This document shows, in pieces, positions 8,401 to 53,278 of a stretch of DNA of 64,000 nt (the stretch's first letter is position 1; each line of letters starts with the position of its first letter). Origin of the DNA: Meghimatium bilineatum (lineage: Eukaryota > Mollusca > Gastropoda > Stylommatophora > Philomycidae); NCBI GenBank assembly GCA_034231615.1, contig CM067310.1, positions 947,501 to 1,011,500 on the forward strand, given 5' to 3'. The translations under genes were made by a program, and so were the position numbers. A model generated the notes under the pieces. That model did no database searches, was not told the DNA's origin, and saw only the letters and a program-made list of their open reading frames with translations.

Positions 8401-11400
8401 TCAACCTGCACTGTGCCAACAGCTTGGGGCAGAGAAGCACATGTGTGAGGGTGCGGGTGGAGAAGCACACATGGGAGGGTGCGGGCGAAGGAGCACATGT
8501 CGGAGGGTGCGGGCGGAGAAGCACATGTGGGAGCAATAATTGTTGCAATAATTTTCCCCCAAAATTATGATAATTTTCTATAATGTTAAAAAAAAAAAAA
8601 TTCAACTTTTTTGGTGTTTTATAAAAGATCTTTGCTAATTGGACATCATTCAACACATCGACTATGTCCACCTGGTCTTTACCTTCTCATGATTACCTAT
8701 ATTGTACTCACCTCATGAGGTCATGAAAGAGGTAGAGGTTAAAAACTACATTTTTGGTAACAATAACTCGTGACAGGTTCACGAGAATCCCATGAAACTT
8801 AATGAACACAAAACTCTCTGACCATATTATTGAATGAATGTAAAAGATTGATGACCCTTGAATAAATTCAGTTGAGAATTCAATGTGCAAGTATGGCTCG
8901 TCTCACTACAGAACAACGATACATCATCTGTAGATGCTTACGTACTAGATGATAACAAAGTGTAGCTGTCAGACAATTTCATGTGGTTAGAAGCACCATT
9001 AGTCGCCTTTAGAGACAATTTCAACAAACTGGCTCAGTGGCAGACGGGTGGCGCAGTGGAAGACCCAGAGTCTTAATTCCTGTCGAATACCGCTTCATAC
9101 AGTTGTGTTACCTCAAGAATCTATTTGTATCTGCTTCTTCCATAGTCCACCAGTCAATGCCAACAGCTTGTCCAGTCAATGCCAACAGCTTGTCGAATTT
9201 CAGATCAAACTGTCGGGAACGCTGGCACGACACTGGTCTTTGCGCAAGAAGACACTGAAGTCCCTGTTCTTACGTATCGCCAGAACCAATTACATTGTAC
9301 GAACCAGCATCGTCACTGGACCGTTGGGAATGACTGGAGATGGGTTTAGTTTGTTTACAATCTTAAAGTTTCCTCATGCCAAGGTTGAAACAAAGTCGTA
9401 AAATAAAAATTTGGTGCGCATTTGAAATAATGTTGTGTTTTTTTTAAATACTATATAATTGTTACAATCATTTTCTATGAACATGATTACAATGGGTTTC
9501 TACAATCCTGGTACTGATATGTATTGACAATAATTTTATATTTTTTTCTTCAAGATGGTGAGGGTTGCCCAGGCTACTTTGATTTTCTTTGTCGTAACTT
9601 GCTGTGTATCGACCAGGAGTTGATGTGTGATGGAGTTGATCACTGCGGTGACGGTTCTGATGAACATCCGTCTATTGATTGTTCTGTCTCAGGTAAGTTG
9701 CTAGATGGAAGATGTTTAGATCAGGGTGTAAGCTGTTATGATGAAAAATGTCTACAGCACAATGCAAGCTGCTAAGATGGAAAATGTTTAGAATAGGATG
9801 TAAGATGTTTAGAACACTGTGTAAGCTGTGCTGGTATGATGAAAGATGTCTAGAACATAATTTAAGCTGCTAAGATGGAAGAAAATGTAAGCTATTATGA
9901 TAGAACATGTCTAGAACAGGATGTAAGATGTCTAGAACAGGATGAAAACTTTAAGATGGAAGATGTCTAGAACAGGATGTAAGCTGCTATGTTGGAAGAT
10001 TAGAGCAGAATGTAAGCTGTAAGATAGATGTCTAGAGCAGGATGTAAGATGGAAGATGTCTAGAGCAGGATGTAATCTACTAAAATTAAAGATATTTATA
10101 GCTGGATGTAAGCTGTTTTGCTGAAAGATATCTGGTACAGGATGTAATCTATTAATATGGAGGATGTCTAGAAAATGATGTAGGCTGTTGTGATGGAAGA
10201 TGTTTAAAGCAGGATGTAAGCTGCTAGATGGAGGATGTCTAGAACAGGATGTAAGCTGCTAGATGGAGGATGATCAGAACAATAGGAATCATGCTCGTCT
10301 TATAAGCAATGTCTGGTCAACAGTGCGGGTCTCACACAGCCATGGCCTACTGGTTGCTGCAAACAGTGTGGGTCTCACACAGGCATGGCCTACTGGTTGC
10401 TGCAAACAGTGTGGGTCTCACACAGGCATGGCCTACTGGTTGCTGCAAACAGTGCGGGTCTCACACAGCCATGGCCTACTGGTTGCTGCAAACAGTGTGA
10501 GTCTCACACAGCCATGGCCTACTGGTTGCTGCAAACAGTGGGGGCAGATATGGACAATTTAAAAAAGCAATGATAACTACAAAGAAAGTTCTAGAATATC
10601 CTATTTAGAACATAGCTACCGATACAGGATTTGTTGACTGTAGCCATGTTTTATGAGCAATATTTTGTGTGTGCAGTAGGTTGTCATTAATCTATGATTG
10701 GTCTGACTATCATAGCACTCAATGTCACAGTTAATTGCTTAAAATAGCTTCAGCAATATAAATACATGGAAACTCAGATGTCATCTCAATTTCCTGTGGT
10801 GGAAAGTGAATCTAGTACTCTGACCATCCAATATCAACCTACTAAACATAAAGCTTTGCCTAGAAAGTAACAACGGTAAAAAATTACATCAAATTACATC
10901 AAGAATTGGATGCACTATCAAGAAATTAGAATAGGGCGGTCAAAGGCAGTGTTGCTAAAATGAAGGATAAACTGTGTCATATGTTCCTGTCATTAGAGGC
11001 GAGGAAGAGAGTTGGTCAGAGCTACATAATACAGATTCTAATATATGCATGCAAATCATGGACAATAAATAAATAGTGGAGGCAACAGAGATGTGATTCT
11101 ATAGACGAATGCTAAGAGTATCATGGACACTTAGAAAAACTGATGAGGAAGTGCTGACAAAATGAATCCCTCAGATTGAAGAATGGTACTAATGTTAATC
11201 AAATATTTTACTGTTACACTTGTATATTTTACTGTTATACTTGTATATTTTACTGTTATACTTGTATATTTTACTGTTATACTTGTATATTTTACTGTTA
11301 TACTTGTATATTTTACTGTTATACTTGTATATTTTACTGTTATACTTGTATGTCCCATGGAAGTTAAAACTCGCAATAGCTTAGGTTGATTAGGGACTAC

Positions 11401-29700: not shown

Positions 29701-32700
29701 ATGAATAAATGATCAGAATATAATCATGAATATATAATCATGAATAAATAATCAGAATATAATCATGAATAAATAATCAGAATATAATCATGAATAAATA
29801 ATCAGAATATAATCATGAATAAATGATCTGAATATAATCATGAATAAATAATCAGAATATAATCATGAATAAATAATCAGAATATAATCATAAATAAATG
29901 ATCAGAATATAATCATGAATAAATAATCAGAATATAATCATAAATAAATAATCAGAATATAATCATGAATAAATTATCAGAATATAATCATGAATAAATA
30001 ATCAGAATATAATCATGAATAAATAATCAGAATATAATCATGAATAAATTATCAGAATATAATCATAAATAAATGATCAGAATATAATCATAAATAAATG
30101 ATCAGAATATAATCATAAATAAATAATCAGAATATAATCATGAATAAATAATCAGAATATAATCATAAATAAATAATCAGAATGACAGAAACTTATACAT
30201 AAACTAAGACAAAATGACAGAAATTAACACAACATGACACAGAATACATACAGGTATATATAAAATATTGTGAGAAATTCCAGGAGATTTGTTTGACAAA
30301 CATGCAACAGGGAGAAGGTGGTTACAGCGATAGTAAGAAAAGAAAATATTCATACCATATTTAACTGTCCAATGGGAGTGCTGTGGATAACATCCTCGTA
30401 GGATGGAGGATGTTCTCCTGAACTTATTGTTACATTCATCAAGCCACCTCCGTTACGCCATGACCAAGGTCTGCCTAAAAAATACATTAACCATCAGTGA
30501 TATCATTAGAAACGGGTTTAAAATGAAAGTCATGAATTCAACTCTGAAGGAGATGAAAGTCATGAATTCAACTCTGAAGAAGATGAAAGTCATGAATTCA
30601 ACTCTGAAGGAGATGAAAGTCATGAATTCAACTCTGAAGGAGGTGAAAGTCATGAATTCAACTCTGAAGGAGGTGAAAGTCATGAATTCAACTCTGAAGG
30701 AGGTGAAAGTCATGAATTCAACTCTGAAGGAGATGAAAGTCATGAATTCAACTCTGAAGGAGATGAAAGTCATTAATTCAACTCTGCAGGAGATGAAAGT
30801 CATTAATTCAATTATGTATGTTGCAGAATAGCCACACAATCCAGAGAATTAAACTTTCTTACAAGCTATATTCTTCTTCTGTGTTTGTTCTCAAACTCCT
30901 GCAGATTAGCAGGATGTAGTCCGGAGAACGGAATGTGTTGTGTCATGGTTTTTCAGCATTGCTGCGATATCTGCTCCTTCCGGCTTGACACGTGACTTCA
31001 GCATGGCTTTGGGTCACTGACCCTATATGGGATGGGACAGCCAACTCCATCCCATAACCTACTTAGTCGCCTTTTACGACATGCATGGAAGGTAAACAGT
31101 GTTGCTATTCTTTGCTCCCCTTTCGGGCCCCGGCAACACACGGGCGTTACAAGCTATATATGTTAGTGTTTCACTCAAAGATAAACAAGAACTTCTTACA
31201 AACTACATCTGTTAGTGCTGCTTTCAACCAATTATGGACAATCAGAAACACTTCTTACCTCTTCTCTGCCGTACATAATCATTAGATGACCTATATGTGG
31301 CATTGCGTAGGCGGCGACACCGACGGATTAAGATGATGAGTAAACAAACAATGCCGATGCCGAGAATAGCTGAGACAACCATTGGGATAATGACATGTAT
31401 ACTGAGTGAGTAGTCATAACCATGAGAGTTAGCATTGCTGACATTGTTGGAGGAGTACTCTGGTGAGAGAACAAACGTTAAGCATACGTAAGGCAATTGT
31501 AAGCAAAAGCAATACTCTATAGTATTCTGTGGTGACTCATGTCTCTGTAAACCATACATTCTCACTGCACATCGAACCATAAATGCTCAGACCTTCTAAA
31601 GCTATCCCTTATCATGTTGTGACTGACTACACACAATGTACTGCCGAGTCCCCTGATTACCTGCATAACATTCATGTTTACTCACATACCTCAACATTAT
31701 TTTCATGTAGGCTGCTCAAGGTTGCAGATTGACAAATATTTGTTGCTTTGGTCACCCATCCTATCTCCATAAGGGTATTCGGAACATCAGTTTGATCCGC
31801 TGCTTGTGTGGTTTTCATGATTGTCTAACAGCAAGACTGTCTGCACGTTTATATCCTCGGATCCTAGCATGTTCAGGTACAAATATGCAGTTGAACTTCC
31901 TGTAAACTGGCATGCGATAACAGCTCGGTTTTTCTGTGGCCGTAGAAGTTTTGTAGAGGAGCTGGGCACCACCATATTAAAACAAGCCCACTCAACTATT
32001 ATTTTGAGACAATAGGTATGTGTTGTAGGTTATCCATAAAAAAGATGTTCTTCAAGGTATGTGGAGGGTGAAAGAAGATGGGGTGATCAGAAGAAGACAT
32101 GACTGGATAATATCCAGGACCTGACAGGGTGTTGGGTTTCCAAACTCACAGGATGATAGAGGACAGAGATGTGTTGTGATCTTTCTACACCAAATGTCTC
32201 ATGATGCCACCGACCATGACAGGTTTTATTATATTGATTCTTATAGATTCTATGCTACATTCCCTATGACTGTGTCACATTCACAGATTCTATGCTACAT
32301 TCCCTATGACTGTGTCAACATGTGTTGAGATATTTGTGTGGGACACCACCTTTCATCCCTACCTCCATCACACTACATAGACTATTCACGATGAGGATCT
32401 GTCTGTCTCAAAGAACACTGCGGGCAATCTACAAGTGTAAGAAGTGCTAGGACAAATCCAAAAACACTCCTACCCCGAACCTTCAGCACTCCTGCAAGCA
32501 CTGCAATAGAACTTTCTGGACCCGAATCTGACTCATCAGGCATCTACGAACTCACAAACCAAATTAAATATTATCAATTTTTGTTCTTTAACGTGTTTAT
32601 TGTATTTATTGTTTTACATGCAATGCTCATCTTTGCTTGCGAAGGAGGAACATCATCACAATACCAGCTGTCCCACCATGTCTTGTCACAACTTAGAAAT

Positions 32701-35700: not shown

Positions 35701-38700
35701 TCACTTGTTAATTAAGGAACACTTATCCTTCATTGTTCCAATCAAAAACCAAAAAAATGATTTTTAAAAAATCTTTCAGTTTGTACTTTTTTAGAAATCC
35801 GAGAAATATGTATACCAGGAAAACTACATACCACACATGCTCGGGATCTCGTCACTGTTATCTCCGCAGTGATCATATGAATCACATTTCAGATGCTCAG
35901 ATATGCACTGCCCATTGTCACATTTGTAATACTCTCTGTAGTCACTGCAACCTGCAAGCAAATATTTCACATTTTTAAACAATTTATTGCAATCTGCAAG
36001 CAGGCATTTGACATTTTCAAACAATTTGTTGCAATCTGCAAGCAGGCATTTGACATTTTCATACAATATGTTGCAATCTACAAATGAAATACTTCTAATT
36101 AAACTACTAACTAAAATTCCATTATTTTTGTAGTATGCACATAAAATCTAAGTATTATGCTTCCTTGATCTACCTGCTTAACCCCCCTCCCCCAAATCCT
36201 AATCTTTCCTCTCCATGCTACAGGATTTCTGGTATCCTGTACCCATGATTCCTGTATCATACATATCCAGCTTGTAACCAGATCTCTCTTGTCCCTCAAA
36301 GTCAGATGTGACAGGCTGGAAACTAAGGTTAGTCATGCCCTTCCCTACATCAAGTAGGACCATAGTCCTACCCAAGCAAGCAAAGGTGCAGAGTTGGTGC
36401 TGACACCAGGCCTAGAGACCCTCCAGCAACAATAGTATCACACAATACAAATAAATAATGTAAACAAATAAATAACGTCTTCAAAAAAAATAATACACAA
36501 AATACTGGTTCTACAACTAAAATCTAAATTTTTAAATGCATGTAACTCAAGCTGTCCTCGCTGATGACATGTACACACCCAGTATTTACTTACCATATGA
36601 ATACATTGCATATGATATAACTACAGAATCGTCTACGTAACAGCCTTTAATTCGAATATAAAAGCCATTCTGAGATCTCTGCACTGCATCGCTGAGAATG
36701 TGATCATTAGGTCTCATCTTCAGACGTTGCTCTTCTGTGGATGTAAGGCCTCCCCGAACTTCCAGACTGTAATCACAGGAGTCCATCAATTCTTTAAAAA
36801 TATAAAGCATCATTTGTGAAAGGAAGGGGAGGAAAAAAATCTGATATAAAAATTAGAAGGAAAACAAATCTAATATAACTTACGAAAGTAGGAGGATGTA
36901 GTGGCATGCTAGTTGTGTGTGTGGGTGTATGTTTGGCTATGTACGTCGTTGGTTGTGTGTTAATTTCCTTTTAGTATGTCCCTTCATCCTTATAATAACG
37001 AGATTACACAATATTATTGAATGCATTATTATATTTTCTCCACCTTGGTCTATAAACAGATTTTAGACTTTGGACACTTTCGAGATGCCAAAATCACATC
37101 CATTGCATTTTTTGGATGGGTTTATACATGGAAATTTAGGATACTGCATGCACCATGAACAATATATGTAAGATGATGTGTTAGTTGCTTGTAAGTGACT
37201 TTACCACTATGCTCTAGCAACCTCTTGCTGCTGTAAAAACTAGTTTCCATAATTATACAAAAAAGGGACCATTTCCAAAATAAGGGTCTACCTTTTTTAC
37301 GGCATGCGAAACAAAATAAATGTCACAGGAGAGACAATTGTTTTCTCATGATTATTTCCCTTGGCTACAATTTCTGATCACTGGCTGGAGCTCGAGATAT
37401 TTCATTTAGGAGGATTGTACGGGTGGGCCTCTCAGTGGGCAGTATTCACAATGGGGAGGGGTGTTCCTCTCAGTGGGTAACAGGACTTTCTGCATCCGCA
37501 GCAATCCTCGCAACTGTAACATGCATACTGCATCTTTATTGGTCACAAGTAAACTCAACATTCTAATGGTAGCCATTTTGTATCCAAGTCTCAATCAGTA
37601 TTCAGTGATGGCACAAAATTACAATCTTTTGTATCAGCACAGATTTCATAAAAAGTGTGAAGGTTGTGTGTGTGTGTGTGTGTGTATATAAACAAACTCC
37701 CTACATTATTTTTTTTTCTAGGCTGTTTGATACGGTTAAAATATTATTTTTTCTTCTTCTTCTTTCGTTCACTTGAAACATGTCTATATCTGTAATTCTG
37801 TCTCCTTAATAAAACTCACTGTCTTTTGTAGTTCATACAGTGTCCCATAGAGTTTTGATTCCAGTGTTGTTTCCTCTGGCCAATATGTCTGCCTCAGCGT
37901 TTCATGCTCAGAACACTCTTGAAGTATATGTTTGGCACTCTGTGCTGCCTGTCCACATGTACACATGGCCGTGTTGCCAATCTTGAACTTTGTATACATG
38001 TGACTGCGGAGTCGGTTGTGTCCTGTTCTGAGACGTAGAATTATAACTTGTTCTGATCTGTTCATATTGTGATAGTCATCTTGTGTTGGTGTTTGTGGCT
38101 TTCTTATTGACTTTATCTGTTTTTTCTGATGGTAGGTGATTGGTATATCTGGTTGGTCTTCAGCAGCACCTTCCTTAGCCAGTTGGTCTGCTTTTTCATT
38201 TCCTGGTATTCCACAGTGAGAGGGTATCCACTGCATGGTTACCCTATACTGGTAAGACAATTCGCTAAGTAGTTTTTTCAAGTCTGTTAGTTTTCCAGAC
38301 TGGAGAGCTTGAAGCACTGACCTTGCATCTGTCAGGAATACCACAGGCTGTAGGTCAGAGTTGGAGTTCAGCAGTTATTTAGCTGCCACACTAATTGCCT
38401 GGATTTCTGCATCATAATTATTGCAGAATTTTCCTGTCGGTGTTCTGATTGTATCTCTAGGCTTGTGTGGATATTCTATATATACACCTGCACCTCCATT
38501 CCTCACAGCATTCTGTGCTGACCCATCTGTGTACACTCTGACCCATATATCTTGTGGATATTCCTCATCCAGGAAACTGAGGGTGACTGTCATTCGCTGC
38601 ACACTGTTCTGTTCGTCCTCGCTTAGTATTCCTTTCACATGGGTCTGAATGTATATTGGCATTCCATGGCTTTCACTCCACGGGGTTTGCTCTGGTACAG

Positions 38701-44700: not shown

Positions 44701-47700
44701 GAGTTTCTTCTGGGTATGAAATAAAGATCTTGACGAAGCTTCCCCATTGCACACAAGGGTACAAGAGTGTTATGGATCATATTTCCAGGGACTGATACAA
44801 ACAAAATCTTACCTGTCACAACATGAGGTATGTCTATAAGCCCTGGGAAAAAAAATGGACAAAAACTGTATAACTCAAAAAGATAAAAATGACAAAATTA
44901 AAGAAAATTTAAGGGAAAAATGGTAGCATTACCAAAACATTACATAATTAAAACTAAAATCAATATTATCATCAACACTTGTCACGCCTGCATGCACAAG
45001 ATGGTTATGGATGGTTGGTTGCTGATTCAGTGTTTGTGAGCTGTCAGTGTTTGTTCCATATAATGTGTTCCATTTATCTGGCCCTGGAGGGAGAAGCATT
45101 TTCCTGATGTCATCCAAAAAGGTGGTGGTCAACTGTTTCATAGGGATGTGTGCACAGCCCGGAGCATATAGTGGTTGTATTCTGTTCAAGAGATTGTCAA
45201 GCTGTACATGTGTGTGAAGTCAGAAAATCATACTCTGGTCTTTCCTTCCCAGGAGGTTGATGTTGTCTTTAGGATATGGGCTGGTCATATATTTATAGAT
45301 TTCTCTACAAGTGTTCCCAATGGCCCATCTGTTCATTCAATTCTCTTTGTTCACAGATTTCAACATCATTTTAACTTTGTGCATGGTTGTTTGTGTATAA
45401 GGCTGTTCTTGTTGAGCTTCCATCTTTGCTTGTCTGTCTGCCTTGTCATTGCCATGTGTGTTTGAGTGACCAGGAATCCACTACATAACAATGCTGACTT
45501 CATAAGATGTAAGCAGCTGGTTGGCATGGTGATATATTTGAACTAGTTCAGGTTTACAATGCCGATCACATTATAGTGCTTGAAGAGTGGACATAGAGTC
45601 TGTAAAAATGTTTTGGACTTTTGATGGAAAGGCATAAAATATGAGCTTCAGGTGGTACAAGGCAACTTCTAGTGCTGTTATTTCAGCTTCATAGTTAGAA
45701 CATATATCCCCACAGGCATCAAACAATTCATCAGATGTTTTGTCTGGATATTCTATATAGACACCATAACCTGCATTGATGATGGTTTTGAAAGCAGACC
45801 CATCTGTATAGACATGAATCCATTCTGGGTGTCTGTTGTTTTCTGTTTTGCTTTCATAAGACTTCCTGGGTTGGAACCTTTCGCTGTATTATCTCTTAAT
45901 TGTGTCTAGATTTCTGGCATGTTAAAACATGCCTGTTGTGGTAAACATTTTTCTACTCTTTTCAGTTCTTGTCTCTTGTCTGGGAGGTGATTGCTGTCTT
46001 TTATTTCATTGACATGGCTGAGGAACAGTCACGAAGAGATTGACAGAGAAATGAAGATATCAGGAAAGAAATAAAGACCATCTCAAGTTAAGACTACATC
46101 AAGAGACAGCAAACCAGGAGATTTGGTCACACTATATTTAACTAGCACTTCATGCCTACAACAGCATGAGATCTGGCTACAAGAACTAGCACTTCATGCC
46201 TCAACAGCAGTAGATCTGGCTACAAGAACTAGCACTTCATGCCTACAACAGCAGTAAATCTGGCTGCAAGGCATGAGAATGATCAAGAACTAGATTGTGG
46301 AGACAATCAAAGATACTTTGTTTCTTGGCCATGGCCAATGCGACCCAAATGGCAACAGACAGACAATTCCAATTTCCTCCCATGATGCTTAATGTCACAA
46401 GTGCAAATGACAATAGATATATTATATATATTCACTAATAGTTCAGGTTGTACAGATTTAAAAAAAATATATATTCACTAATAGTTCAGATTAAAAAAAA
46501 TATGGCTGAAATATCTTACTGTTATAAAATCTGACCACAGCTTTAAATCCTAGAAAGCTTAGATTACTAAATACTCTTCTGTATTCCCCGGTGCTAAAAG
46601 TCATGTTCATTGATTGTCCATGAGATACGATATAAGGTCGTATATTTAATCCAGAAATTCGGTTGACAACATTAGCTCCCTCGAACTGGAAATACAAAAA
46701 AAGCTAACAGTATTAATATAATATAATTTTTATTTTAAAAAAAGAACATAACCAAATAACCAAGAAACAATGAAAATAAATAAGTAATTTATATGTTATA
46801 AATAAGAAAGCATATTTCGAGTAGCAATCTATGGTTGTGAAACATGGACACTTATAAAACATTGGCATAGAGAATTGCTGCGATTAGAATGAGACACTAC
46901 AGAAGGATTTTTAGAATACCACAGACAGCACAAAATATGAATCAATAATGATAAGCGCTTTAAATGTCGAAGATTGTTGACTCCTAAACAATATTATAAA
47001 AGCTGAGGTTTTTCTGTCATATAAAGAGACAAAACAACATGGACATAACAACAACATAATTGAAGGCACCCTCGTTGGTAACAGGGGTAACATCCAAGAC
47101 GATGTATATGAGATATCTCAGATTGTTTAAATATGCCCTTAGCTGAAGCTGGTCAACACATTCAGAAATATGCCCTTAGCTGAAGCTGGTCAACACATTC
47201 AGAAATATGCCCTTAGCTGAAGCTGGTCAACACATTCAGAAATATGCCCTTAGCTGAAGCTGGTCAACACATTCAGAAATAGCACCTGAATGAAATAAAA
47301 GAATATGTTCCCTGAATGACATAGAAGAATATGTTCCCTGAATGAAATAGAAGAATATGTTCCCTGAATGAAATAGAAGAATATGTTCCCTGAATGAAAT
47401 AGAAGAATATGTTCCCTGAATGAAATAGAATATGTTCCCTGAATGAAATAGAAGAATATGTTCCCTGAATGAAATTGAAGAATATGTTCCCTGAATGAAA
47501 TAGCAGAATCTGTTCCCTGAATGAAATAGAAAAATATGTTCCCTGAATGAAATAGAAGAATATGTTCCCTGAATGAAATAGAAAAATTAAGAAATTTGAA
47601 GGAGATTTCATATTTAAAGGTTTTAATCAGAATGTTATACTGTATGTGCATGAATTTAAATATTTTGGGATTATTTTAGAAGACAGAAGAATGAACTGAG

Positions 47701-50700
47701 AGATTTAGGAAAGAATTCAAAAGTAAACTACATAAATTACAAACTTACAAAATTCAAACACACATCTCTTACGATGGAAACCAAATAGATAGATGGAAAT
47801 GACAATAGATAGATCAAAACTAATTCTGACTTATTTGTAATCATCAAACCTGTATGGTAGAATACGGGGCAAGCATCCAGTCATCAAATGTTACTGTAAT
47901 GTAGAAATTCGGCCAGGAGCCCTGAAACATGTATACAAACTGTTCATCACTTGCCAAATAAGGATTCGGAAAATCTGGGCTGGTTATCGTTCGTTGAGAG
48001 CGTGATAGATATATGTTGCTATTAATTACTTGAACTTTTTCTGGAACAGTGAACAAAGAAAGAAAACTTCAACAAAATAATTCATATATGATGATTGGAA
48101 TCACTAGAAGAACATAATCAAGAACCTAACAACTAGATCTGAAAATAAAACATAGAACAATAAATTTATCTTCAAAAATTATCCATTTTTTCTCCAAAAT
48201 TTTTCAACTTATCTCACAAATTTTCAATTTATATTCACAAATTTTCAATTTTGATCATAAACAATTATGAATTTGTCCTCCGAAATCATGAATTTCTTAA
48301 TTTATTCACATATCAAGTATTATAGATTTACTGTAGAGATCATCAATTTGTTGACAGAAACCTTTATCAATTTGTTCACAGAAACCATCAATTTGTTGAC
48401 AGAAACCATCAATTTGTTGACAGAAACCTTCATCAATTTGTTGACAGAAACCATCATCAATTTGTCCACAGAAACCATCATCAATTTGTCCACAGAAACC
48501 TTCATCAATTTGTCCACAGAAACCTTCATCAATTTGTCCACAGAAACCTTCATCAATTTGTCCACAGAAACCTTCATCAATTTGTCCACAGAAACCTTCA
48601 TCAATTTGAAACAGTCACCAGGATTTTTGTCAAGGAGGCGAAAAGTGTAAACATGATTTACCAATGAATTCTTCTTCAGTCAGTCTCAGACTCCTGCAGA
48701 TTAGCAGGAAACAGTCCGGAATGCATAGTCATGATTTGCAGTTTGGCTGCAATATCTGTGCCTTTTGGTCTGATGGATTTGACTTCAGCATAGTTTATGG
48801 GATACTGTGACATTGATGGGACAGGTAACTCCACTTCGTCCCCCACACCAAAAAAATGTTTAGTCTTGCAACAAGGTTACAACGTTCATGATAACAGGTA
48901 AAAGTGTCATTTCTTCTTCTTCTTTCATTCTCAGATTCCTACAGTTCAGCAGGACACAGTCTAGAGAACAAAATATCTTCTTCTTCTTTCTGTCCTCATG
49001 TACCTTTCGGTGTTGAGGGGAGAGTGAGTGTACGGTCTTTTGCCCTTCTATTTGCCTCCTCTGCTGTTATATTTCCAAGTGTCTCTAATACACTATCTAT
49101 CCACCTTTTACGAGGGCGTCCAATAGGTTAAAATATATTGTTTTAATTTATAGCTTTGCTGTGATATCTGCACCTTATGGCCAGACACATTCAACTTCAG
49201 CATGACGTTTGGGTCACTATGCTTTACTCCCCTCCTTAGTCACCTCTAACAACATACATGGAAGTTAAACAGTGTCAGTATGCTTTACTCCCCTCCTTAA
49301 TCACCTCTAACAACATACATGGAAGTTAGTGTGACTATTCTTTACTCCCCTGACAGGCCATATCAACCCACGGTTGAACTTACCAACCACAGTTAGTAGA
49401 AGTCTCATTGTTATATTTAATGGAAAGACATGGTTGGCACAAGCGACAACCTGCAGATGTTTCGACAAACTCTCATATCCTTTGGCTGCTAGAGAACTTG
49501 AAACTCTTCTCCACATCACAGACTTGTACTTGGCATCACTCAGTAGAAGATACACACAGCTGGTGATATACACAACATGAGATTAGACAGAACATGAGTT
49601 TAGATAGAACATCATTTACAGAATATCTTCTTCTTCAGTGTTCATTCTCAAACTCCCGCTGGATCTCTCTTGTAGCAGCACAATGGCCCTACTAGATTTC
49701 ATTCTCAAACTCCCGCTGGATCTCTCTTGTAGCAGCACAATGGCCCTACTATATTTCCAGCAGGATGTAGTCCAGAGAATGGAAATTTGTTGTGTTGCCA
49801 TTTTATTTGCACCAATGGCCTGATACATCCATCTTTGACAGGATTTACAGAATATGAGATTAGATAGAACATCATATACAGGGCATGAGATTAGATATAC
49901 AGAACAAAGAGAAAATATGAATATAGGATATTATCTTCTTCTTCTTCAGTTCATTCCCAAACTCCAGCTAGATCTCTCTTGTAACAGGACAATATACATT
50001 GGACAACAGTAAATGTGCTGTATCACTGTCTTATTTGTGCCAATGGTTCGACACATCTGACTTCGACGTAATATTAGATATAATATCAAACAATGAGATA
50101 GATCACCAAATAAAACAGGAAGCAGAGGCAGCATTTGTCAACTGTGGTTTGACATAGAAGGAAAGTTTGAATTTGGAAGATGTTACTTCAGGAAGGTGTT
50201 CACGGCAATGAAAGCACAGATTGGCAGGCATTTATTATTAATGTGTTGGGTGGTAAAAAATGGATACCACTGACATACTGAACTACTTATGAGAAACAGG
50301 GGGTCAGTAAATTAAAGAGGATGACGATTTCTTGCCCATGTACAGAATAAAGTAGTTGTTGGGTTTAAAATTTGGCATGGCCAGAAATGAAAGCTAATGT
50401 GGACTTTAATTGAACTACCAATGAGACAGGATACAACTAAAATACTTCTCCAGGAACACAACTAAAATACTTATCCAGGAACACAACTACTAATGAGACA
50501 GGATACAACTAAAATACTTATCCAGGAACACAACCAAAATACTTATCCAGGAACACAACTACTAATGTGACAGGATACAACTAAAATACTTATCCAGGAA
50601 CACAACTAAAATACTTATCCAGGAACACAACTACTAATGAGACATGATACAACTAAAATACTTCTCCAGGAACACAACTAAAATACTTCTCCAGGAACAC

Positions 50701-53278
50701 AACTAAAATACTTACCCAGGAACACAACTAAAATACTTACCCAGGAACACAACTAAAATACTTATCCAGGAACACAACTAAAATACTTACCCAGGAACAC
50801 AACTACTAAAGAGACAGGATACAACTAAAATACTTACCCAGGAACACAACTAAAATACTTACCCAGGAACACAACTACTAAAGAGACATGATACAACTAA
50901 AATACTGACCCAGGAACACAACTACTAAAGAGACAGGATACAACTAAAATACTTACCCAGGAACACAACTAAAATACTTATCCAGGAACACAACTAAAAT
51001 ACTTATCCAGGAACACAACTAAAATACTTATCCAGGAACACAACTAAAATACTTACCCAGGAACACAACTGCGGTTAATTCCACCATTTTGATGGCATTC
51101 TGGAATATGAAACAGAGGTTCAGCACTATTGACTTTGATACGACAGTGATCGCAGGTTTCAAAGGTTGCCACACATGAATCAGAATCATATAGTGTAGAT
51201 TGGTGTGTCCAGTTGACATAAATGTACATGAAGTCCCCTGGATGTGAGAGCGCAGCCTTGATCTGAGCCGACTCTTGACTGCAGATGTCATATTCTGTGA
51301 CAACAGAATATGGAATATGATAACACGCTATGTGTGTGTGTGTGTGCATGTATATATGCATATATGTAAGCCTATGCATGTGTGTGTGTATATATATCTT
51401 ACTCATCATTTTTGCTGTGTATATATACTTGATAAAGACCTTTTGGTCGCAATGTCGATTTGTGTGTGTTATTATGTGTGTTTCTAGCAATCACAAAAAA
51501 TCCATTACCCTGTTACAAACTTTACCTATATGTTCATGTTGTTCGTCCATCACATGATGATGATGTATGTGTTGTTCGTCCATCACATGATGATGATGTA
51601 TGTGTTGTTCGTCCATCACATGATGATGATGTATGTGTTGTTCGTCCATCACATGATGATGATGACCATTTGTTACATCCACTTTTGAAAATTCAATTTT
51701 AGTTATGTCCTTGATTATGAGTTCGTAGATGGCTAATGAGCCCTATTCGAGCTGTAAATGTCCTTGGACAGTTTGGACATGGAATAACGACTGTAGACGG
51801 ATCTTGGTCCATCCGTGACTTTCTAGCTGCTCTCCGCTGCATTTCTCTTCTTTTCACAAGATGATGCGCTCTTTTTTATTTTAGAACGCCATGTAGATCT
51901 ATTTTGTGCAAGTTCTTCCCAGGCTTTCAGTGAGTCCTTTAACGAGTCCTTGTAGCGCTTCCTTTGGCCACCTCGAGATCGTATACCCTTCTCTAGCTCA
52001 CCATAGAGAAGTATCTGTGGCAGACGATGGTCTGGCATATGCACCAAATGACCTGCCCAACGAATCTGTGTCTGCATCAGGATCGTGTCAATGCTTGGGA
52101 TACCAGCTCTATCAAGGACAGTGGTATCTGGAATCTTGTCTTGCCATCTGATGTTCATAACTTTTCTGAGACAATTTGCATGAAAATGATTGCGTTTTTT
52201 CACATGACGTCTATACACAGTCCATGTTTCACTAGCGTAAAGCAGCACTGGAAGTACCACTGCTCTGTAAACTTTCAGCTTAGTCTGTAGGTTAATGCCA
52301 TTTCTACGCCAAACATTTGCGTACAATCTGCAGAAAGTACTGCTTGCTTTGGCGATCCTTGTATACACTTCATCATCAACGTTGGCATTTTGTGATAACG
52401 TACTGCCTAGATATGTGAATCTATTCACAACTTTCAGTGCTACACCATTTACCTTTATGCAGGGCTCGAGATAGCTTTTGCCAAGTGCTGGTTGTAACAT
52501 GACTTCTGTTTTCTCTGTGTTAATGGTAAGCCCAAAGCTGGTACAGGCTTTGGAGAATCTGTCTATAATACATTGTAGATCAGCCTCAGAGTTGGCATTT
52601 AGGGCACAGTCATCAGCAAATAGAAGATCCCTGATTGTGTGTGATTTAATTTGGTTTTTGCTCGAAGCCGCCGAAGGTTGAACAATTTTCCATCTAGAGA
52701 TATATATATAAACACACACACTAAGTGTCCATTAAGTCACAGTGCACTCTTTTACATGTCTGGTGGCACTAGAACACATCACATGGTGTTTTTTCCTCAT
52801 GTCACTGAAAGTACTTTTAGCCATTGAAATTCTCCTGTTAACTTCTCTAACACATCAAACATGATTTGTGTTTATGTGTCAGAGATATTGGAAATTATCT
52901 ACTTGTTCTAGCATCTCTCCATGTATTTTAATATTTATCAACTGTTTTCTTCAATTTTGTCAATCATCAAAATTAATATAGAAGAAATATTATACAAACT
53001 TAACTTTTTAAATATATATCTTACGTCAACGACCGATGTGTCTGGCCATTGCCGCAAATAAAACAGTGACACAACGCATTTCCATTCTCTGGACTACATC
53101 CTAATGGAAATCTAATAGGACCATTGTCCCGCTACAAAAGATCCAGCGGGAGTTTGAGAATGAATGCGGAAGAAGAAATATATACCTAAGCATTTATAAG
53201 GAACCCAAAAGAAAAAAAAACAAGAATGTATTCTGTATAACTGACCTGTTGGTAAGTCTTCCAGAGATAGAGCATCAG
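25721..53278 (-). CDS. Gene 2: CUB-CUB-CUB-LDLa transmembrane receptor with PPxY tail
   Basis: Twelve exons with matching phases give 885 residues; the initiator exon is not identified. Layout: linker 1-11; CUB-like 12-150; CUB 151-268 (TSPDFPNPY, ITVTFDDW, FLGFKAVVRF); linker 270-278; CUB 279-395 (GGIMHL, CIWIIKK, SLEVRGG); LDLa 396-435; membrane helix about 458-480 followed by RRCRRLR; cytoplasmic tail about 405 residues. The tail has PPSY at 525-528 and 556-559, the class of motif bound by WW domains of NEDD4-type ubiquitin ligases. Sequons are frequent outside (NWT, NRS, NIT, NMT, NLS). The CUB...LDLa-TM order resembles Neto and LEV-10 auxiliary proteins of neuronal receptors; that is a similarity of layout only. 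Single-pass type I surface protein is well supported; the function is inferred. Confidence 0.9.
26810..27195 (+). repeat. about 27-bp array in gene 2 intron
   Basis: Irregular units of GATGTAAAACTAGAAAATAT and ATGACACT; AAAATTATGATAATT variants are mixed in. About 14 units. Confidence 0.88.
27200..28275 (-). pseudogene. LINE fragment (RT fingers and RNase H)
   Basis: In several frames on -: ITDALKSSRNSAPGPDGIR (RT finger motif), LANGTLEEAWLYSYIIPLPK, LGGYCPGKQTYCDI, MIDLEDAYNRV (catalytic F/L-D motif A), then a GNAGVRGNERADKLA-type RNase H end and RVMAHTLRR. Many stops. A third LINE lineage, distinct from LINE-A; inserted in the last gene 2 intron. Confidence 0.8.
28497..30182 (+). repeat. 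25-bp AT-rich array, about 66 units
   Basis: Unit AATCATGAATAAATAATCAG plus AATAT; common variant ATAAATGATCAG. Six or so units are shortened (28665-28740, 29730). Homogeneous over 1.7 kb inside the last intron of gene 2. It is extremely AT-rich and could act as a DNA-unwinding or matrix-attachment element, which is only speculation. Confidence 0.96.
30356..30474 (-). CDS. Gene 2 exon: start of cytoplasmic tail, first PPSY
   Basis: Acceptor is TTTTTTAG (30475-30477), not the CAG four bases downstream, because only the first keeps the frame open. Encodes GRPWSWRNGGGLMNVTISSG, then EHPPSYEDVIHSTPIG. Enters in phase 1, leaves in phase 0. Confidence 0.85.
30520..30815 (+). repeat. 30-bp array
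   Basis: About ten units of GAAAGTCATGAATTCAACTC plus TGAAGGAGAT. Contains an EcoRI-type GAATTC in most units; open on both strands because 30 is divisible by three. Sits 45 bp upstream of the gene 2 acceptor. Confidence 0.95.
30872..31146 (-). mobile_element. SINE-X, intact copy with 13-bp target duplication
   Basis: Flanked by perfect direct repeats TTACAAGCTATAT (30859-30871 and 31147-31159). On - it has CCCGAAAGGGGAGCAAAGAA, TGTCGTAAAAGGCGACTAAG, GGGATGGAGTTGGCTGTCCC, CTACATCCTGCTAATCTGCA and GAGTTTGAGAAC, ending in GAAGAAGAA. It defines the family borders at 275 bp. A tRNA-like head is not obvious, so the 5' end may be truncated. Lies in a gene 2 intron. Confidence 0.93.
31259..31459 (-). 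CDS. Gene 2 exon: stalk and transmembrane helix
   Basis: Acceptor TCTCACCAG, donor GAG|GTAAGA, phase 1 at both ends. Encodes EYSSNNVSNANSHGYDYSL, the hydrophobic IIPMVVSAILGIGIVCLLII and the stop-transfer RRCRRLR, then YRSSNDYVRQRR. Confidence 0.95.
31460..32040. other. gene 2 intron, no feature recognised
   Basis: Unique-looking sequence with short ORFs lacking motifs. Confidence 0.6.
32045..32225 (+). mobile_element. LINE tail fragment
   Basis: Decayed GRPKKTWLDN-like stretch: TWLDNIQDLTG, then VSKLTG and EDR, the familiar LINE C-terminal end. Stops present. Confidence 0.55.
32370..32575 (+). mobile_element. LINE 3' end with zinc-finger remnant
   Basis: Contains CKHCNRTFWTRI and LIRHLRTH, the same C2H2-like ending as LINE-B (CPNCPRTF, RIGLISHLRTH), cut by a stop. 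Confidence 0.6.
32880..33775 (+). repeat. AT-rich array (about 40 bp) split by a LINE insertion
   Basis: Units with AGTTAGTAGTGTATAAGTTT and ATAAAGTTATAATTTTAT run to about 33072, and the same motif resumes at 33695 (TGAAGTTAGTAGTTTATAAG). The LINE fragment between them was inserted into the array. Confidence 0.8.
33075..33690 (+). pseudogene. LINE fragment carrying the founder sequence of the 1-4225 array
   Basis: Reads NNLEYLGSTINTT, SAFNMKCYRKVRRISLAE, then SADVCKDLNIEDWFLKTI. The last segment (33380-33418) is the monomer of the 39-bp array, present once. Downstream the frame decays (GKPRLR, EHDTGTGW) and parallels 4226-4455. Confidence 0.88.
33776..34300. other. gene 2 intron, no feature recognised
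   Basis: AT-rich unique sequence. Nothing supported. Confidence 0.55.
34310..34440 (+). repeat. 31-bp array
   Basis: Four units of GTACTGACTACATGTATATC plus ATGTCTGACTT. Confidence 0.93.
34480..34985 (+). pseudogene. LINE C-terminal fragment
   Basis: TLCYQCQTWTWSL, a KCQRKAAMVL-like stretch, then RQQVKWCGHLMRMNINQIP, RPRKRWIENIKITLNKHRLN. Same family as the - copy at 59985-60335 (GLMRINSNQIPIRAY, RRWIENIKIALNKHGLN). Frame largely open for 78 codons. Confidence 0.82.
35030..35195 (-). mobile_element. tRNA-derived SINE (type Z)
   Basis: On -: GTGGATAAGCAGATTACACG (A-box region), GGTTCAATTTCC (B-box-like), then GTATATCTGGACCATTCAGA and ATGGCAACCTACTGATGT as in the 11690-12005 pair. Confidence 0.7.
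35205..35708 (+). repeat. 42-bp array open on both strands
   Basis: Twelve units: CTGACTGAATCACTTGATGA, ATCTCACTCCAGACATCCTT, GT. + frame repeat LDESHSRHPCLTES, - frame repeat IQSDKDVWSEIHQV. No signal peptide, splice context or known domain, so treated as non-coding. Confidence 0.93.
35832..35951 (-). CDS. Gene 2 exon: LDLa module
   Basis: Acceptor TTGCTTGCAG, donor TGTG|GTATGT, phase 1 at both ends. Complete six-Cys LDLa: CSDYREYYKCDNGQC, HLKCDSYDHCGDNSDE, final Cys in PSMC. One exon equals one module, as in gene 1. Confidence 0.95.
35946..36080 (-). repeat. 42-bp array built from the LDLa acceptor
   Basis: On - each unit reads CAAATGCCTGCTTGCAG, then ATTGCAA; the true acceptor is ATTTGCTTGCAG followed by GTTGCA. 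The unit thus spans the 3' splice site and the first six exon bases. Two close copies and a partial third lie upstream of the real site, giving extra AG acceptors. Confidence 0.85.
36305..36430 (+). mobile_element. LINE-A 5' UTR-like fragment
   Basis: GGCTGGAAACTAAGGTTAG, then AGGACCATAGTCCTACCCAA resembles the - strand of 41640-41770 (GGCTGGAAACTAAGACTGG, AGGACCATAGTCCTGCCCTA). Confidence 0.65.
36594..36791 (-). CDS. Gene 2 exon: last CUB, C-terminal part
   Basis: Acceptor ATTTTTAAAG, donor TATG|GTAAGT, phase 1 at both ends. Encodes ELMDSCDYSLEVRGGLTSTE, RPNDHILSDAVQ, NGFYIRIKGCYVDDSVVISY. Aligns by eye with the gene 1 exon 7912-8124 (SLEVRKG, GLYMRLQGGFYSTDKLSFTY). Confidence 0.92.
36800..37740. 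other. gene 2 intron, one microsatellite
   Basis: (GT)n at about 37663-37684. No coding or mobile sequence recognised. Confidence 0.6.
37745..41790 (-). mobile_element. LINE-A: nearly full-length EN-RT-RNase H retrotransposon
   Basis: About 4 kb on -, in the intron between the two halves of the last gene 2 CUB. Order: 5' leader (41790-41620), APE-like endonuclease, reverse transcriptase, RNase H, CCHC-like zinc motif, short 3' UTR ending CAAGTGAACGAAAGAAGAAG and an A-rich tail. An RNase H after the RT places it with the I/Nimb/Ingi group rather than RTE. No ORF1 is seen, so it may be 5' truncated. Fragments of the same family are at 6480, 13312, 18328 and 36305. Confidence 0.93.
37784..41617 (-). 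pseudogene. LINE-A polyprotein ORF, broken by frameshifts and a stop
   Basis: Open pieces: 41617-41204, 41159-39705, 39642-39346, 39232-38375, 38344-37784. Endonuclease: IKIMHWNAEGVNSK, CCIQETHLSS, GDFNSHSQSWGYD and LGGSDHRPV. RT: KMKKSPGADGVSNEM, YRPISLTSCLCKTMERII, HGVPQGGVLSPTLFLVYIND and the catalytic MYADDLVIW. RNase H: VYTDGSAQNAVRNGG, NYDAEIQAISVAAK, FLTDARSVLQAL and GIPGNEKADQLAKEG. C-terminal CTCGQAAQSAKHILQEC. Breaks: frameshifts near 41210, 39710 and 39345-39240, and a TAA at about 38374. All catalytic residues are still readable, so the copy is fairly young but not functional as it stands. Confidence 0.93.
42175..42252 (+). repeat. 26-bp triplicate
   Basis: TTTGTCAGAATAGAAAGTGT plus TTTAAA, three copies, next to the gene 2 exon that follows. 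Confidence 0.9.
42287..42439 (-). CDS. Gene 2 exon: last CUB, N-terminal part
   Basis: Acceptor GTTGCTGCAG, donor TATG|GTAAGT, phase 1 at both ends, 153 bp. Encodes GCDYMVTASEGGIMHL, then DCIWIIKKVPSYHGVYLKII. Conserved CUB core C-x-W. Confidence 0.93.
42455..42670 (+). mobile_element. LINE 3' fragment
   Basis: NVNHGQ-type remnant of YECESWTMSK, ending NLHCGDGT and two stops, as in the LINE at 61280-61740 (ANLRCGDGT). A deletion removed the middle. The 30-bp array starts about 35 bp later. Confidence 0.6.
42703..43700 (+). repeat. 30-bp array, about 33 units
   Basis: Unit GTGTGGGTGATGTCAATAGT plus GACACAGAAA; some units end AAAGA or AAAGAGAA, which changes frame. + frame repeat SVGDVNSDTE. 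Open in several frames, but with no gene context; regarded as non-coding. Confidence 0.95.
43818..43882 (+). repeat. 21-bp triplicate
   Basis: CACCATTCAGTGGTATACAC plus C, three copies; the third unit is partial. Confidence 0.9.
43925..44040 (+). mobile_element. SINE-Y copy, diverged
   Basis: AAAATAAAACAACGACATCA, TTCTGTTCTCTGGACTACA and CTGCTACAAGAGAGACC match the family; the GAAGAAG tail is missing. Confidence 0.7.
44041..44812. other. gene 2 intron, no feature recognised
   Basis: The - frame that runs on from the 30-bp exon is only intron read-through. Duplicated ACACCGCTGACATTTGGT- and ACACCGTTGACATTTGGT-type motif at 44647-44695. Nothing else. Confidence 0.5.
44813..44842 (-). CDS. Gene 2 microexon (30 bp)
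   Basis: Acceptor TTTTTTTCCCAG, donor ACAG|GTAAGA, phase 1 at both ends. Encodes LIDIPHVVT between the second and third CUBs. Its phase fits both neighbours, and without it the frame is still kept, so it could be a skippable linker. Confidence 0.75.
44945..46020 (-). pseudogene. LINE RNase H fragment
   Basis: On -: ADGSAFKTIINAGYGVYIEY, CSNYEAEITALEVALYHLK, IFTDSMSTLQAL and WIPGHSNTHGNDKADRQAK: the four RNase H blocks, with stops. Related to LINE-A but clearly another family. It lies in a gene 2 intron. Confidence 0.85.
46140..46275 (+). repeat. about 43-bp triplicate
   Basis: GATCTGGCTACAAGAACTAG and CACTTCATGCCTACAACAGC, three imperfect units. Confidence 0.85.
46520..46685 (-). CDS. Gene 2 exon: second CUB, C-terminal part
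   Basis: Acceptor TTGTATTTCCAG, donor AACA|GTAAGA; enters phase 0, leaves phase 1. Encodes FEGANVVNRISGLNIRPYIV, GQSMNMTFSTGEYRRV and FLGFKAVVRFYN, the closing strands of a CUB. Confidence 0.9.
46790..47125 (+). mobile_element. LINE C-terminal fragment
   Basis: RVAIYGCETWTLI, a decayed NVEDC stretch, SYKETKQHGHNNNIIEG, then LAEAGQHIQK. The final AEAGQ segment is the founder of the next array. Confidence 0.7.
47125..47280 (+). repeat. 37-bp array from a LINE tail
   Basis: Four units of GCCCTTAGCTGAAGCTGGTC plus AACACATTCAGAAATAT. Encodes LAEAGQHIQK, the helix that ends many LINE proteins (compare TEAGRLAQDR at 62370-62410). Confidence 0.88.
47281..47590 (+). repeat. 26-bp array
   Basis: About 11 units of GAATATGTTCCCTGAATGAA plus ATAGAA, directly after the 37-bp array. 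Confidence 0.95.
47850..48040 (-). CDS. Gene 2 exon: second CUB, N-terminal part
   Basis: Acceptor CACTGTTCCAG, donor ACAG|GTTTGA; enters phase 1, leaves phase 0. Encodes EKVQVINSNIYLSRSQ, then TSPDFPNPYLASDEQFVYMF, WPNFYITVTFDDWMLAP. SPDFPNPY is the classical CUB opening motif. Confidence 0.93.
48345..48612 (+). repeat. 24/21-bp array
   Basis: About 11 units of ACAGAAACCTTCATCAATTT plus GTCC; the first units lack one codon. Divisible by three, so open on both strands. Confidence 0.93.
48665..48850 (-). mobile_element. SINE-X fragment
   Basis: TCAGACTCCTGCAGATTAGC, CAGTCCGGAATG, GCAATATCTGTGCCTTTTGG and CTTCAGCATAG match the SINE-X order; the far end is missing. Confidence 0.75.
48910..49135 (-). 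mobile_element. SINE-Y tail plus LINE tail fragment
   Basis: 48910-48975 is a short SINE piece (CAGGACACAGTCTAGAGAAC). 48975-49135 on - reads GRPRKRWIDSVLETLGNITA, EEANRRAKDRTLTLP, a LINE C-terminus ending near a TTCTTCTTCTTTC tail. Confidence 0.7.
49140..49370 (-). mobile_element. SINE-X fragment with internal duplication
   Basis: GCTGTGATATCTGCACCTTA, CTTCAGCATGACGTTTGGGT and ACATACATGGAAGTTAAACA match SINE-X. The stretch TATGCTTTACTCCCCTCCTT to CATGGAAGTTA is duplicated. Confidence 0.7.
49384..49559 (-). CDS. Gene 2 exon: first CUB-like domain, C-terminal part
   Basis: Acceptor TATATCACCAG, donor GTTG|GTAAGT. Enters in phase 2, leaves in phase 1, exactly the shift needed between the exons at 51057 and 47850. 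Encodes CVYLLLSDAKYKSVMWRRVS, YESLSKHLQVVACANHVFPL and NITMRLLLTVVG. The phase fit is the main argument; domain assignment to CUB is tentative. Confidence 0.82.
49622..49850 (-). mobile_element. SINE-Y copy with internal duplication
   Basis: The segment ATTCTCAAACTCCCGCTGGA to GCACAATGGCCCTACTA occurs twice (49647-49690 and 49701-49752). Then CAGGATGTAGTCCAGAGAAT and GCACCAATGGCCTGATACAT. Confidence 0.82.
49935..50075 (-). mobile_element. SINE-Y copy
   Basis: CTTCTTCTTCAGTTCATTCC, CTAGATCTCTCTTGTAACAG and GCCAATGGTTCGACACATC. Confidence 0.78.
50414..51069 (-). repeat. 25-bp array built from an exon end plus splice donor
   Basis: Unit on +: CCAGGAACACAACTAAAATA plus CTTAC or CTTAT. On - it reads AGTTGTGTTCCTGG|GTAAGT, the last 14 bases of the gene 2 exon and its donor. 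GGGTAAGT occurs seven times, counting the real site; other units have ATAAGT or AGAAGT and one has GTCAGT. Longer units add ACTAATGAGACAGGATACAA. Six extra consensus donors lie within 400 bp downstream of the true one. Confidence 0.9.
51057..51294 (-). CDS. Gene 2 exon: first CUB-like domain, N-terminal part
   Basis: Acceptor TGTTGTCACAG, donor CCTGG|GTAAGT; enters phase 1, leaves phase 2. Encodes EYDICSQESAQIKAALSHPG, FMYIYVNWTHQSTLYDSDS, FETCDHCRIKV and HIPECHQNGGINRSCVPG. Seven cysteines, more than a plain CUB, so the domain may be CUB-like or a Cys-rich variant. Confidence 0.85.
51320..51400 (+). repeat. TG/TA microsatellite
   Basis: TGTGTGTGTGTGTGCATG and GTGTGTGTATATATAT in the intron before the exon above. 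Confidence 0.9.
51490..52700 (-). pseudogene. LINE-B: RT C-terminal half with zinc-finger end
   Basis: A 298-codon open frame (52719-51823) reads RDLLFADDCALNANSEADLQ (catalytic FADD), SFGLTINTEKTEVM, NRFTYLGSTLSQNA, LPVLLYASETWTVYRRH, CLRKVMNIRWQDKIPDT and RGGQRKRYKDSLK. After a stop at 51823 it continues VVIPCPNCPRTFTARIGLIS, HLRTH, a C2H2-like finger. Upstream RT motifs are absent (5' truncated). The start Met lies in host (TA)n sequence, so no intact protein is made. Fragments at 6375, 7000, 7500 and 57910. Confidence 0.9.
51538..51668 (-). repeat. 33-bp array at the LINE-B 3' end
   Basis: Four units of GTTGTTCGTCCATCACATGA plus TGATGATGTATGT. The LINE-B 3' UTR normally has one GTGATGGACGAAC (7595-7608), so the array is an expansion of the element's own end. 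Confidence 0.88.
52720..53027. other. gene 2 intron, no feature recognised
   Basis: Short TA-rich run at its start, otherwise unique AT-rich sequence. Confidence 0.6.
53028..53180 (+). mobile_element. SINE-Y copy
   Basis: CGACCGATGTGTCTGGCCAT, GACACAACGCATTTCCATTC, CTACAAAAGATCCAGCGGGA, GTTTGAGAATGAATGCGGAA and GAAGAAAT. Imperfect flanking AATATATATCTTA / AATATATACCTAA may be the target duplication. Confidence 0.88.
53246..53278 (-). CDS. Gene 2 microexon (33 bp), first exon found
   Basis: Acceptor TTGTTTACAG, donor ACAG|GTCAGT, phase 1 at both ends. Encodes ADALSLEDLPT, joined to EYDIC of the next exon. As with the 30-bp exon it is short, phase 1 and acidic/aliphatic. The exon carrying the start and signal peptide must lie upstream. 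Confidence 0.65.

What the first reader, a model, noticed from the sequence alone, without database searches (positions are those of the whole stretch)
50414..51294. Second exon-edge minisatellite: 25-bp array of a gene 2 exon end and its donor
Independently of gene 1, the last 14 exon bases and GTAAGT of a gene 2 CUB-like exon are amplified about 25-fold. Seven units keep a perfect GGGTAAGT; many others have mutated the donor (ATAAGT, AGAAGT), which could reflect selection against decoys or plain drift.
Basis: partly seen in the sequence, partly recalled or inferred. Interest (0 to 1): 0.8.

Follow-up and report, generated by a model that had tools for sequence, protein, structure and literature searches.

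The report
Minisatellite copying an exon's splice donor
The end of one exon of what looks like an animal gene, together with the splice signal that follows it, has been copied about twenty times head to tail into the intron; this looks like a kind of repeat already described in amphioxus genes ("mirages"), in a stretch of genome that is unusually full of tandem repeats, and it is most likely a by-product of repeat growth.

Summary
The array is real and has a clean exon context, but it belongs to a known kind. On the minus strand, window 51069-50416 holds 27 head-to-tail units: 20 A-units of 25 bp (13 exon-end bases + donor + ATTTTA) and 7 B-units of 22 bp. Seven A-units keep GGGTAAGT, one has GTCAGT, nine ATAAGT, three AGAAGT. 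A phase-consistent six-exon model puts the real exon end at the first copy, 51057|51056; each of the seven downstream donors gives an immediate stop. Arrays that repeat an exon-intron boundary are published from amphioxus as "mirages". Tandem arrays cover 18,351 of 64,000 bp; 3 of 19 modelled exon edges lie in arrays against 5.5 expected by random shift, so no attraction to exon edges is seen. The selection idea is suggestive at best: 3 of 4 variable A-unit sites fall in the donor hexamer (P 0.03-0.05, post hoc) and dead units exceed a simple neutral simulation (P 0-0.014), but dead units are clustered as if spread by duplication, and gene 1's own array keeps 6 of 7 decoy donors. No RNA was seen; the host species is unidentified.

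The parts
51057..51294 (-). Exon 'ex51' of gene 2 (238 nt, phase 1 in, phase 2 out), ending ...TGT GTT CCT GG
   Evidence: acceptor TTCTGTTGTCACAG, open frame, phase-consistent with the next exon; no Pfam or PDB match on its own
51051..51056 (-). Real donor GTAAGT, in the first array unit
   Evidence: phase 2 end matches the phase 2 start of exon 49559-49384; the only one of the 8 GTAAGT/GTCAGT donors in the array that gives no stop; use in RNA is inferred
50416..51069 (-). Array of 27 units: 20 A-units (25 bp) and 7 B-units (22 bp)
50710..50956 (-). Seven downstream decoy donors (first bases 50956, 50909 [GTCAGT], 50862, 50837, 50790, 50740, 50715)
   Evidence: used as exon end, each gives a stop one codon past the exon end (0-based protein position 79)
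50438..50631 (-). Distal part of the array in which all six A-units have a dead donor (ATAAGT or AGAAGT)
49560..51056 (-). Intron of 1497 nt that carries the array at its 5' end
49384..49559 (-). Next exon (phase 2 in, phase 1 out)
   Evidence: the scan of 48060-51056 for open exons of 30-600 nt with a pyrimidine-rich acceptor, a GT[AG]AG donor and phases 2 to 1 returned two rows, both with this donor and differing in the acceptor (49559 or 49538)
47850..48040 (-). Exon with the N-terminal half of a CUB-like domain
   Evidence: phmmer to MASP-1/3 CUB, E 0.0011; phase 1 in, 0 out
46520..46685 (-). Exon read as the C-terminal half of the CUB-like domain
   Evidence: phase 0 in, 1 out; its only Pfam row is a sub-threshold DUF3895 (E 0.14), so the CUB assignment is inference
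35832..35951 (-). LDL-receptor class A exon; its acceptor lies in another tandem array (35946-36083)
   Evidence: PF00057 above its gathering score; array and repeated TTGCAG acceptors
31242..31459 (-). Transmembrane-type 3' exon, to the in-frame stop
   Evidence: phase 1 in; hydrophobic stretch read by eye; Pfam gives only sub-threshold hits to TM families

Best explanation
This is a mirage-type minisatellite: a tandem array that grew from a segment straddling an exon-intron boundary. Shown: a 25-bp unit (last 13 exon bases, donor position, ATTTTA) is present 20 times, mixed with 7 copies of a 22-bp second type, at the 5' end of a 1.5-kb intron, and the first copy is the exon end in a phase-consistent model. 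Inferred: the array grew by replication slippage or unequal exchange in a genome rich in minisatellites; the splicing machinery uses the first donor, since all seven later donors would produce an immediate stop; the dead-donor variants are a few mutations (+1 G>A, then +2 T>G on that background; +3 A>C gives the weak GTCAGT) that spread by segment duplication. Whether selection helped them spread is open. No function for the gene need be invoked.
For: Unit decomposition. Phases agree across six exons, and the scan for a bridging exon returned only the exon ending at 49384. Stops after every later donor. Tandem arrays cover 18,351 of 64,000 bp, and 3 of 19 exon edges inside arrays is no more than the 5.47 expected by circular shift, so nothing special seems to target exon edges. 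Other edges show the same: gene 1 donor at 6069 in array 6051-6207, gene 2 LDLa acceptor in array 35946-36083. Published precedents in amphioxus Adh3, globin, TnC and PGBD5 genes; the globin paper reports AG/GT signals in many but not all copies and RT-PCR results that suggest regular splicing.
Against: No transcript was seen, so the use of the first donor is inferred. All 20 copies keep the 13 exon-derived bases unchanged while the donor triplet varies, and 12 of 20 dead donors is rare in the simple neutral simulation (P 0 to 0.0139 over five settings); that leaves room for selection. The B-unit's origin is not explained: it shares GTTGT and a TCCTG-like stretch with the A-unit but aligns poorly after that. 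The mirages seen in the papers are from cephalochordates, and the host here is unknown.
Confidence: 0.78

Rival explanations
1. Selection against decoy donors: once the exon end and donor had been multiplied, copies with a working donor caused aberrant, stop-containing mRNA, so that copies with a mutated GT were favoured and spread until 12 of 19 downstream copies were dead.
For: 3 of 4 variable A-unit sites fall in the 6-base donor (P 0.031-0.045) and 2 of 4 on GT itself (P 0.034); 12 or more of 20 dead is reached in 0-1.4% of accepted neutral runs; all 7 later live donors give an immediate stop. The fourth A-unit change (A25G) and one B-unit change (A19G) each remove the A of an AG acceptor dinucleotide.
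Against: Tests are post hoc and rest on four events. Dead units are clustered distally (P 0.024) and in few runs (P 0.025), as duplication of a few lineages would give. Gene 1's array of the same kind keeps GTAAGT in 6 of 7 later listed copies. The simulation has no B-units or gene conversion, one setting had only 387 accepted runs, and the probability is highest at the longest turnover.
Confidence: 0.15
2. The array supplies optional micro-exons: acceptor-like AG sites in it followed by 12 or 15 exon-derived bases and a donor would insert CVPG or SCVPG in frame between this exon and the next.
For: Seven such in-frame, stop-free 12- or 15-nt segments exist, six before GTAAGT and one before GTCAGT (only in-frame combinations up to 200 nt were listed). 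B-units have a pyrimidine-rich TCCTGTCTCTTTAG acceptor. The published intron-gain model for mirages is of this type.
Against: Exons of 12-15 nt are poorly recognised as a rule (general knowledge), the A-unit acceptors look weak, and in-frame length follows from the exon end being copied whole. No RNA evidence.
Confidence: 0.03
3. Assembly artefact: the number and order of units are wrong because reads were collapsed or mis-joined.
For: Arrays with long identical units are a known assembly problem; the amphioxus globin paper rebuilt one such array from trace data because the draft looked wrong.
Against: Units carry distinct variants and two unit types are mixed in a partly regular order; tandem arrays form 56 merged blocks of many kinds over the window. 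No reads were available to test it.
Confidence: 0.04

Closest known systems
Amphioxus 'mirages' (Adh3, globins BflGb6 and BflGb9, TnC, PGBD5); PMC3087553 and PMC3902484, passages seen; the original Adh paper is not held
   Same: Minisatellite-like tandem copies of an exon-intron boundary, at donors and acceptors, with AG/GT signals in many but not all copies, and homogenised copies within the array
   Different: Host unidentified here; 25- and 22-bp units in a mixed order (units quoted in the passages run from 10 to 160 bp); length instability and regular splicing not tested
Intron gain by tandem duplication that carries splice signals (PMC4974935, abstract seen)
   Same: Tandem duplication across an intron-exon boundary
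   Different: There the duplicate creates a new intron; here the copies lie within one existing intron and no new intron is shown
Variable internal tandem repeats of human segmental-duplication genes (PMC2812944, passages seen)
   Same: Minisatellite expansion that may touch an exon-intron boundary and activate cryptic splice sites
   Different: Human paralogs compared with transcripts; on average 30-bp units repeated 4 times
Intronic minisatellites of earthworm metallothionein genes (PMC12783039, passages seen)
   Same: Minisatellite arrays in an intron of an invertebrate gene
   Different: The passages describe arrays within intron 1 and undescribed exon-4 duplications, not copies of an exon edge with its donor

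Membership tests
Mirage (boundary-spanning minisatellite) | Tandem units that contain an exon-intron boundary, one of them being the real boundary | tested here: met
   20 A-units hold exon end plus donor position; the first is the phase-consistent exon end
Mirage (boundary-spanning minisatellite) | Many but not all copies keep splice signals | tested here: met
   8 of 20 keep GT (7 GTAAGT, 1 GTCAGT), 12 of 20 do not
Mirage (boundary-spanning minisatellite) | Regular mRNA splicing in spite of the copies | not testable with these tools
   no RNA data
Mirage (boundary-spanning minisatellite) | Length instability between haplotypes or somatic cells | not testable with these tools
   one haplotype only; the genome search did not complete
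Mirage (boundary-spanning minisatellite) | Cephalochordate host (all cases in the passages read) | not tested
   host species of the window not identified
CUB domain (PF00431) for the exon 51294-51057 | Pfam or PDB CUB match | tested here: not met
   no match; no CUB row for ex51+ex49 joined or for the whole joined protein; the MASP-like match is to exon 48040-47850 only
LDL-receptor class A (PF00057) for gene 2 | Pfam score above gathering cut-off | tested here: met
   27.4 and 24.6 bits against 24.1
Intron gain by tandem duplication | A new intron bounded by the duplicated signals | tested here: inconclusive
   seven in-frame micro-exon segments exist but no use is shown

The most novel reading that the evidence does not exclude
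A boundary-spanning minisatellite whose copies are being disarmed by selection: the exon-derived part stays identical in all 20 copies while donor positions +1 to +3 are hit, making the array a record of selection against decoy splice donors; if the host is not a cephalochordate, it would also show that mirages are a general feature of minisatellite-rich animal genomes.
Probability: 0.15. Interest if true: 0.55.

Novelty: new member of a known kind. Interest (0 to 1): 0.27.

Why it matters
Boundary-spanning minisatellites are natural experiments in how the spliceosome chooses among identical donors, and a suggested route to new introns and exons. This one is clean: a countable set of live and dead donors, a true donor whose position the reading frame fixes, and a contrasting array in the neighbouring gene 1. 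As it stands it adds a case, not a principle.

Tried and rejected
Exon homology by self-comparison: one weak match of ex51 to the plus strand at 31583-31729 (E 0.009, which printed 59 of 184 rows, so the rest were not seen) was looked at and dropped: the plus-strand frame is open over the match but stops soon after, it lies close beside gene 2's own 3' exon on the other strand, and a search of over a thousand fragments is expected to give such a hit. The first self-comparison without masking of arrays was swamped by them and its output was cut. In one search the queries labelled ex51 and ldla were translated in the wrong frame, so those rows say nothing; the masked run used all frames.

Donor content of arrays in general: 3 of 43 array consensus units score above 8 for a donor on either strand, against a mean of 1.7 in shuffled units (120 of 500 shuffles reach 3), so donors are not clearly enriched in arrays. 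The TRF consensus of the array at issue carries the dead donor and is not among the 3. The donor matrix is an approximate human one from memory.

Related DNA: the 24-base unit pattern has no exact match in viral contigs or genome contigs. Paper searches on boundary minisatellites gave the two amphioxus papers and the human and potato cases; an earthworm paper was checked by passages and describes arrays within an intron. Other listed papers, among them one on Conus gene introns (PMC3862624), were not opened, and most subscription papers are not held, so I do not claim that cases outside cephalochordates are unpublished.

Full report
What is there. Read on the minus strand, window 51069-50416 is 27 head-to-tail units. 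Twenty are GTTGTGTTCCTGG-xxx-AGTATTTTA (25 bp), where xxxAGT is the donor position: GTAAGT 7, GTCAGT 1, ATAAGT 9, AGAAGT 3. Seven are GTTGTATCCTGTCTCTTTAGTA or near it (22 bp). Order from the exon (A GTA, a ATA, g AGA, c GTC, B second type): AaaaABcBAABAaAAggBaaBaaBagB.

Where the exon ends. The exon 51294-51057 has an acceptor (TTCTGTTGTCACAG), an open frame, and ends in phase 2 at CCT GG. The CUB-like exon downstream starts in phase 1, so a bridging exon is needed; a scan of 48060-51056 for open exons of 30-600 nt with a pyrimidine-rich acceptor, a GTAAG or GTGAG donor and phases 2 to 1 returned two rows, both ending at 49384, with acceptors at 49559 or 49538. The joined model then runs in phase through 48040-47850, 46685-46520, 35951-35832 and 31459 onward, ending in a hydrophobic stretch and a stop. 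Pfam finds the LDL-receptor class A domain above its cut-off. A PDB sequence search finds MASP-type CUB for 48040-47850 (E 0.0011; 0.011 in the joined protein), but Pfam's CUB model does not match the joined protein. The exon at issue has no match of its own, so "CUB-like exon" is not shown for it. All seven later donors in the array would bring in a stop one codon past the exon end. The first copy is therefore the functional donor by inference; no RNA was seen.

Is it special that an array sits on an exon edge? Tandem arrays of period 10 or more cover 18,351 of 64,000 bp in 56 merged blocks. Of 19 exon edges modelled in gene 1 and gene 2, three lie inside arrays and four within 5 bp; random circular shifts give 5.47 and 5.66 (P of at least that many 0.89 and 0.79). 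There is no excess. The three are gene 1's donor at 6069, this donor, and the acceptor of gene 2's LDLa exon; the fourth is the donor of gene 1's LDLa exon, which is followed by a degenerate array. Three of gene 1's edges were entered one or two bases off, without effect on the count. Genes 1 and 2 share the CUB-end-to-LDLa stretch (25 of 67 residues identical, E 4e-11); gene 1's CUB score, 13.2 bits, is below Pfam's cut-off of 21.4.

Drift or selection? For: of four variable positions in the A-unit, three are donor +1, +2 and +3 (hypergeometric 0.031; binomial 0.045), two are GT itself (0.034). The fourth, A25G, removes the A of an AG. In a neutral growth model conditioned on four segregating changes, 12 or more dead donors of 20 occurred in 0.0016, 0, 0.0018, 0.0048 and 0.0139 of 2462, 387, 4411, 2294 and 3967 accepted runs. 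Against: these are four events looked at after the fact; the dead units are distal (6 of 6 against 6 of 14, P 0.024) and in few runs (6, P 0.025), so unit counts overstate independent evidence; B-units, which have no donor, vary at four of 22 positions among seven copies; in gene 1's array six of seven later copies listed keep GTAAGT, and by eye one further truncated copy lacks it. I leave selection at about 15%.

Known kind. [quoted passage not shown] its Adh3 and RT-PCR data suggest no interference with regular splicing, and it proposes mirages as a route to intron gain. PMC3902484 (passage read) adds PGBD5 and cites TnC. The finding matches in anatomy. It cannot be tested here for length instability or splicing, and the host is not identified, so a cephalochordate origin is neither shown nor excluded.

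A bolder reading. Seven segments of 12 or 15 nt in the array, each with an AG before and a GTAAGT (six) or GTCAGT (one) after, would insert CVPG or SCVPG in frame. This is what the published intron-gain model would start from, but in-frame length follows simply from copying the exon end, and such short exons are rarely used (general knowledge).

Limits. The own-genome search did not complete (ten tries, last), the unit was not found in two public collections, and no transcript data are available.

Noticed in passing
6051-6207: Gene 1 (+ strand) has its own donor-edge array with a 20-bp unit; the real donor GATG|GTAAGT is at 6069 and six of seven later listed copies keep GTAAGT.
   Followed up: partly
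35946-36083: A 42-bp array repeats the acceptor region (TGCTTGCAG) of gene 2's LDLa exon: an acceptor-edge counterpart of the same phenomenon.
   Followed up: partly
9693-10281: After gene 1's LDLa exon donor (CAG|GTAAGT) lies a degenerate, roughly 36-bp array whose units contain CAGGATGTAAGC, possibly an old donor-edge array.
   Followed up: no
47285-47587: A 26-bp array with repeated TTTCATTCAG|G acceptor-like sites inside the intron between the two CUB-like half exons.
   Followed up: no
2-63959: 28.7% of the window is tandem arrays of period 10 or more, in 56 merged blocks, including one of 4.2 kb at its start.
   Followed up: partly
51823-52731: Reverse-transcriptase fragment (PF00078) on the minus strand about 0.5 kb upstream of the exon, followed by a C2H2-finger-like tail read by eye.
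   Followed up: no
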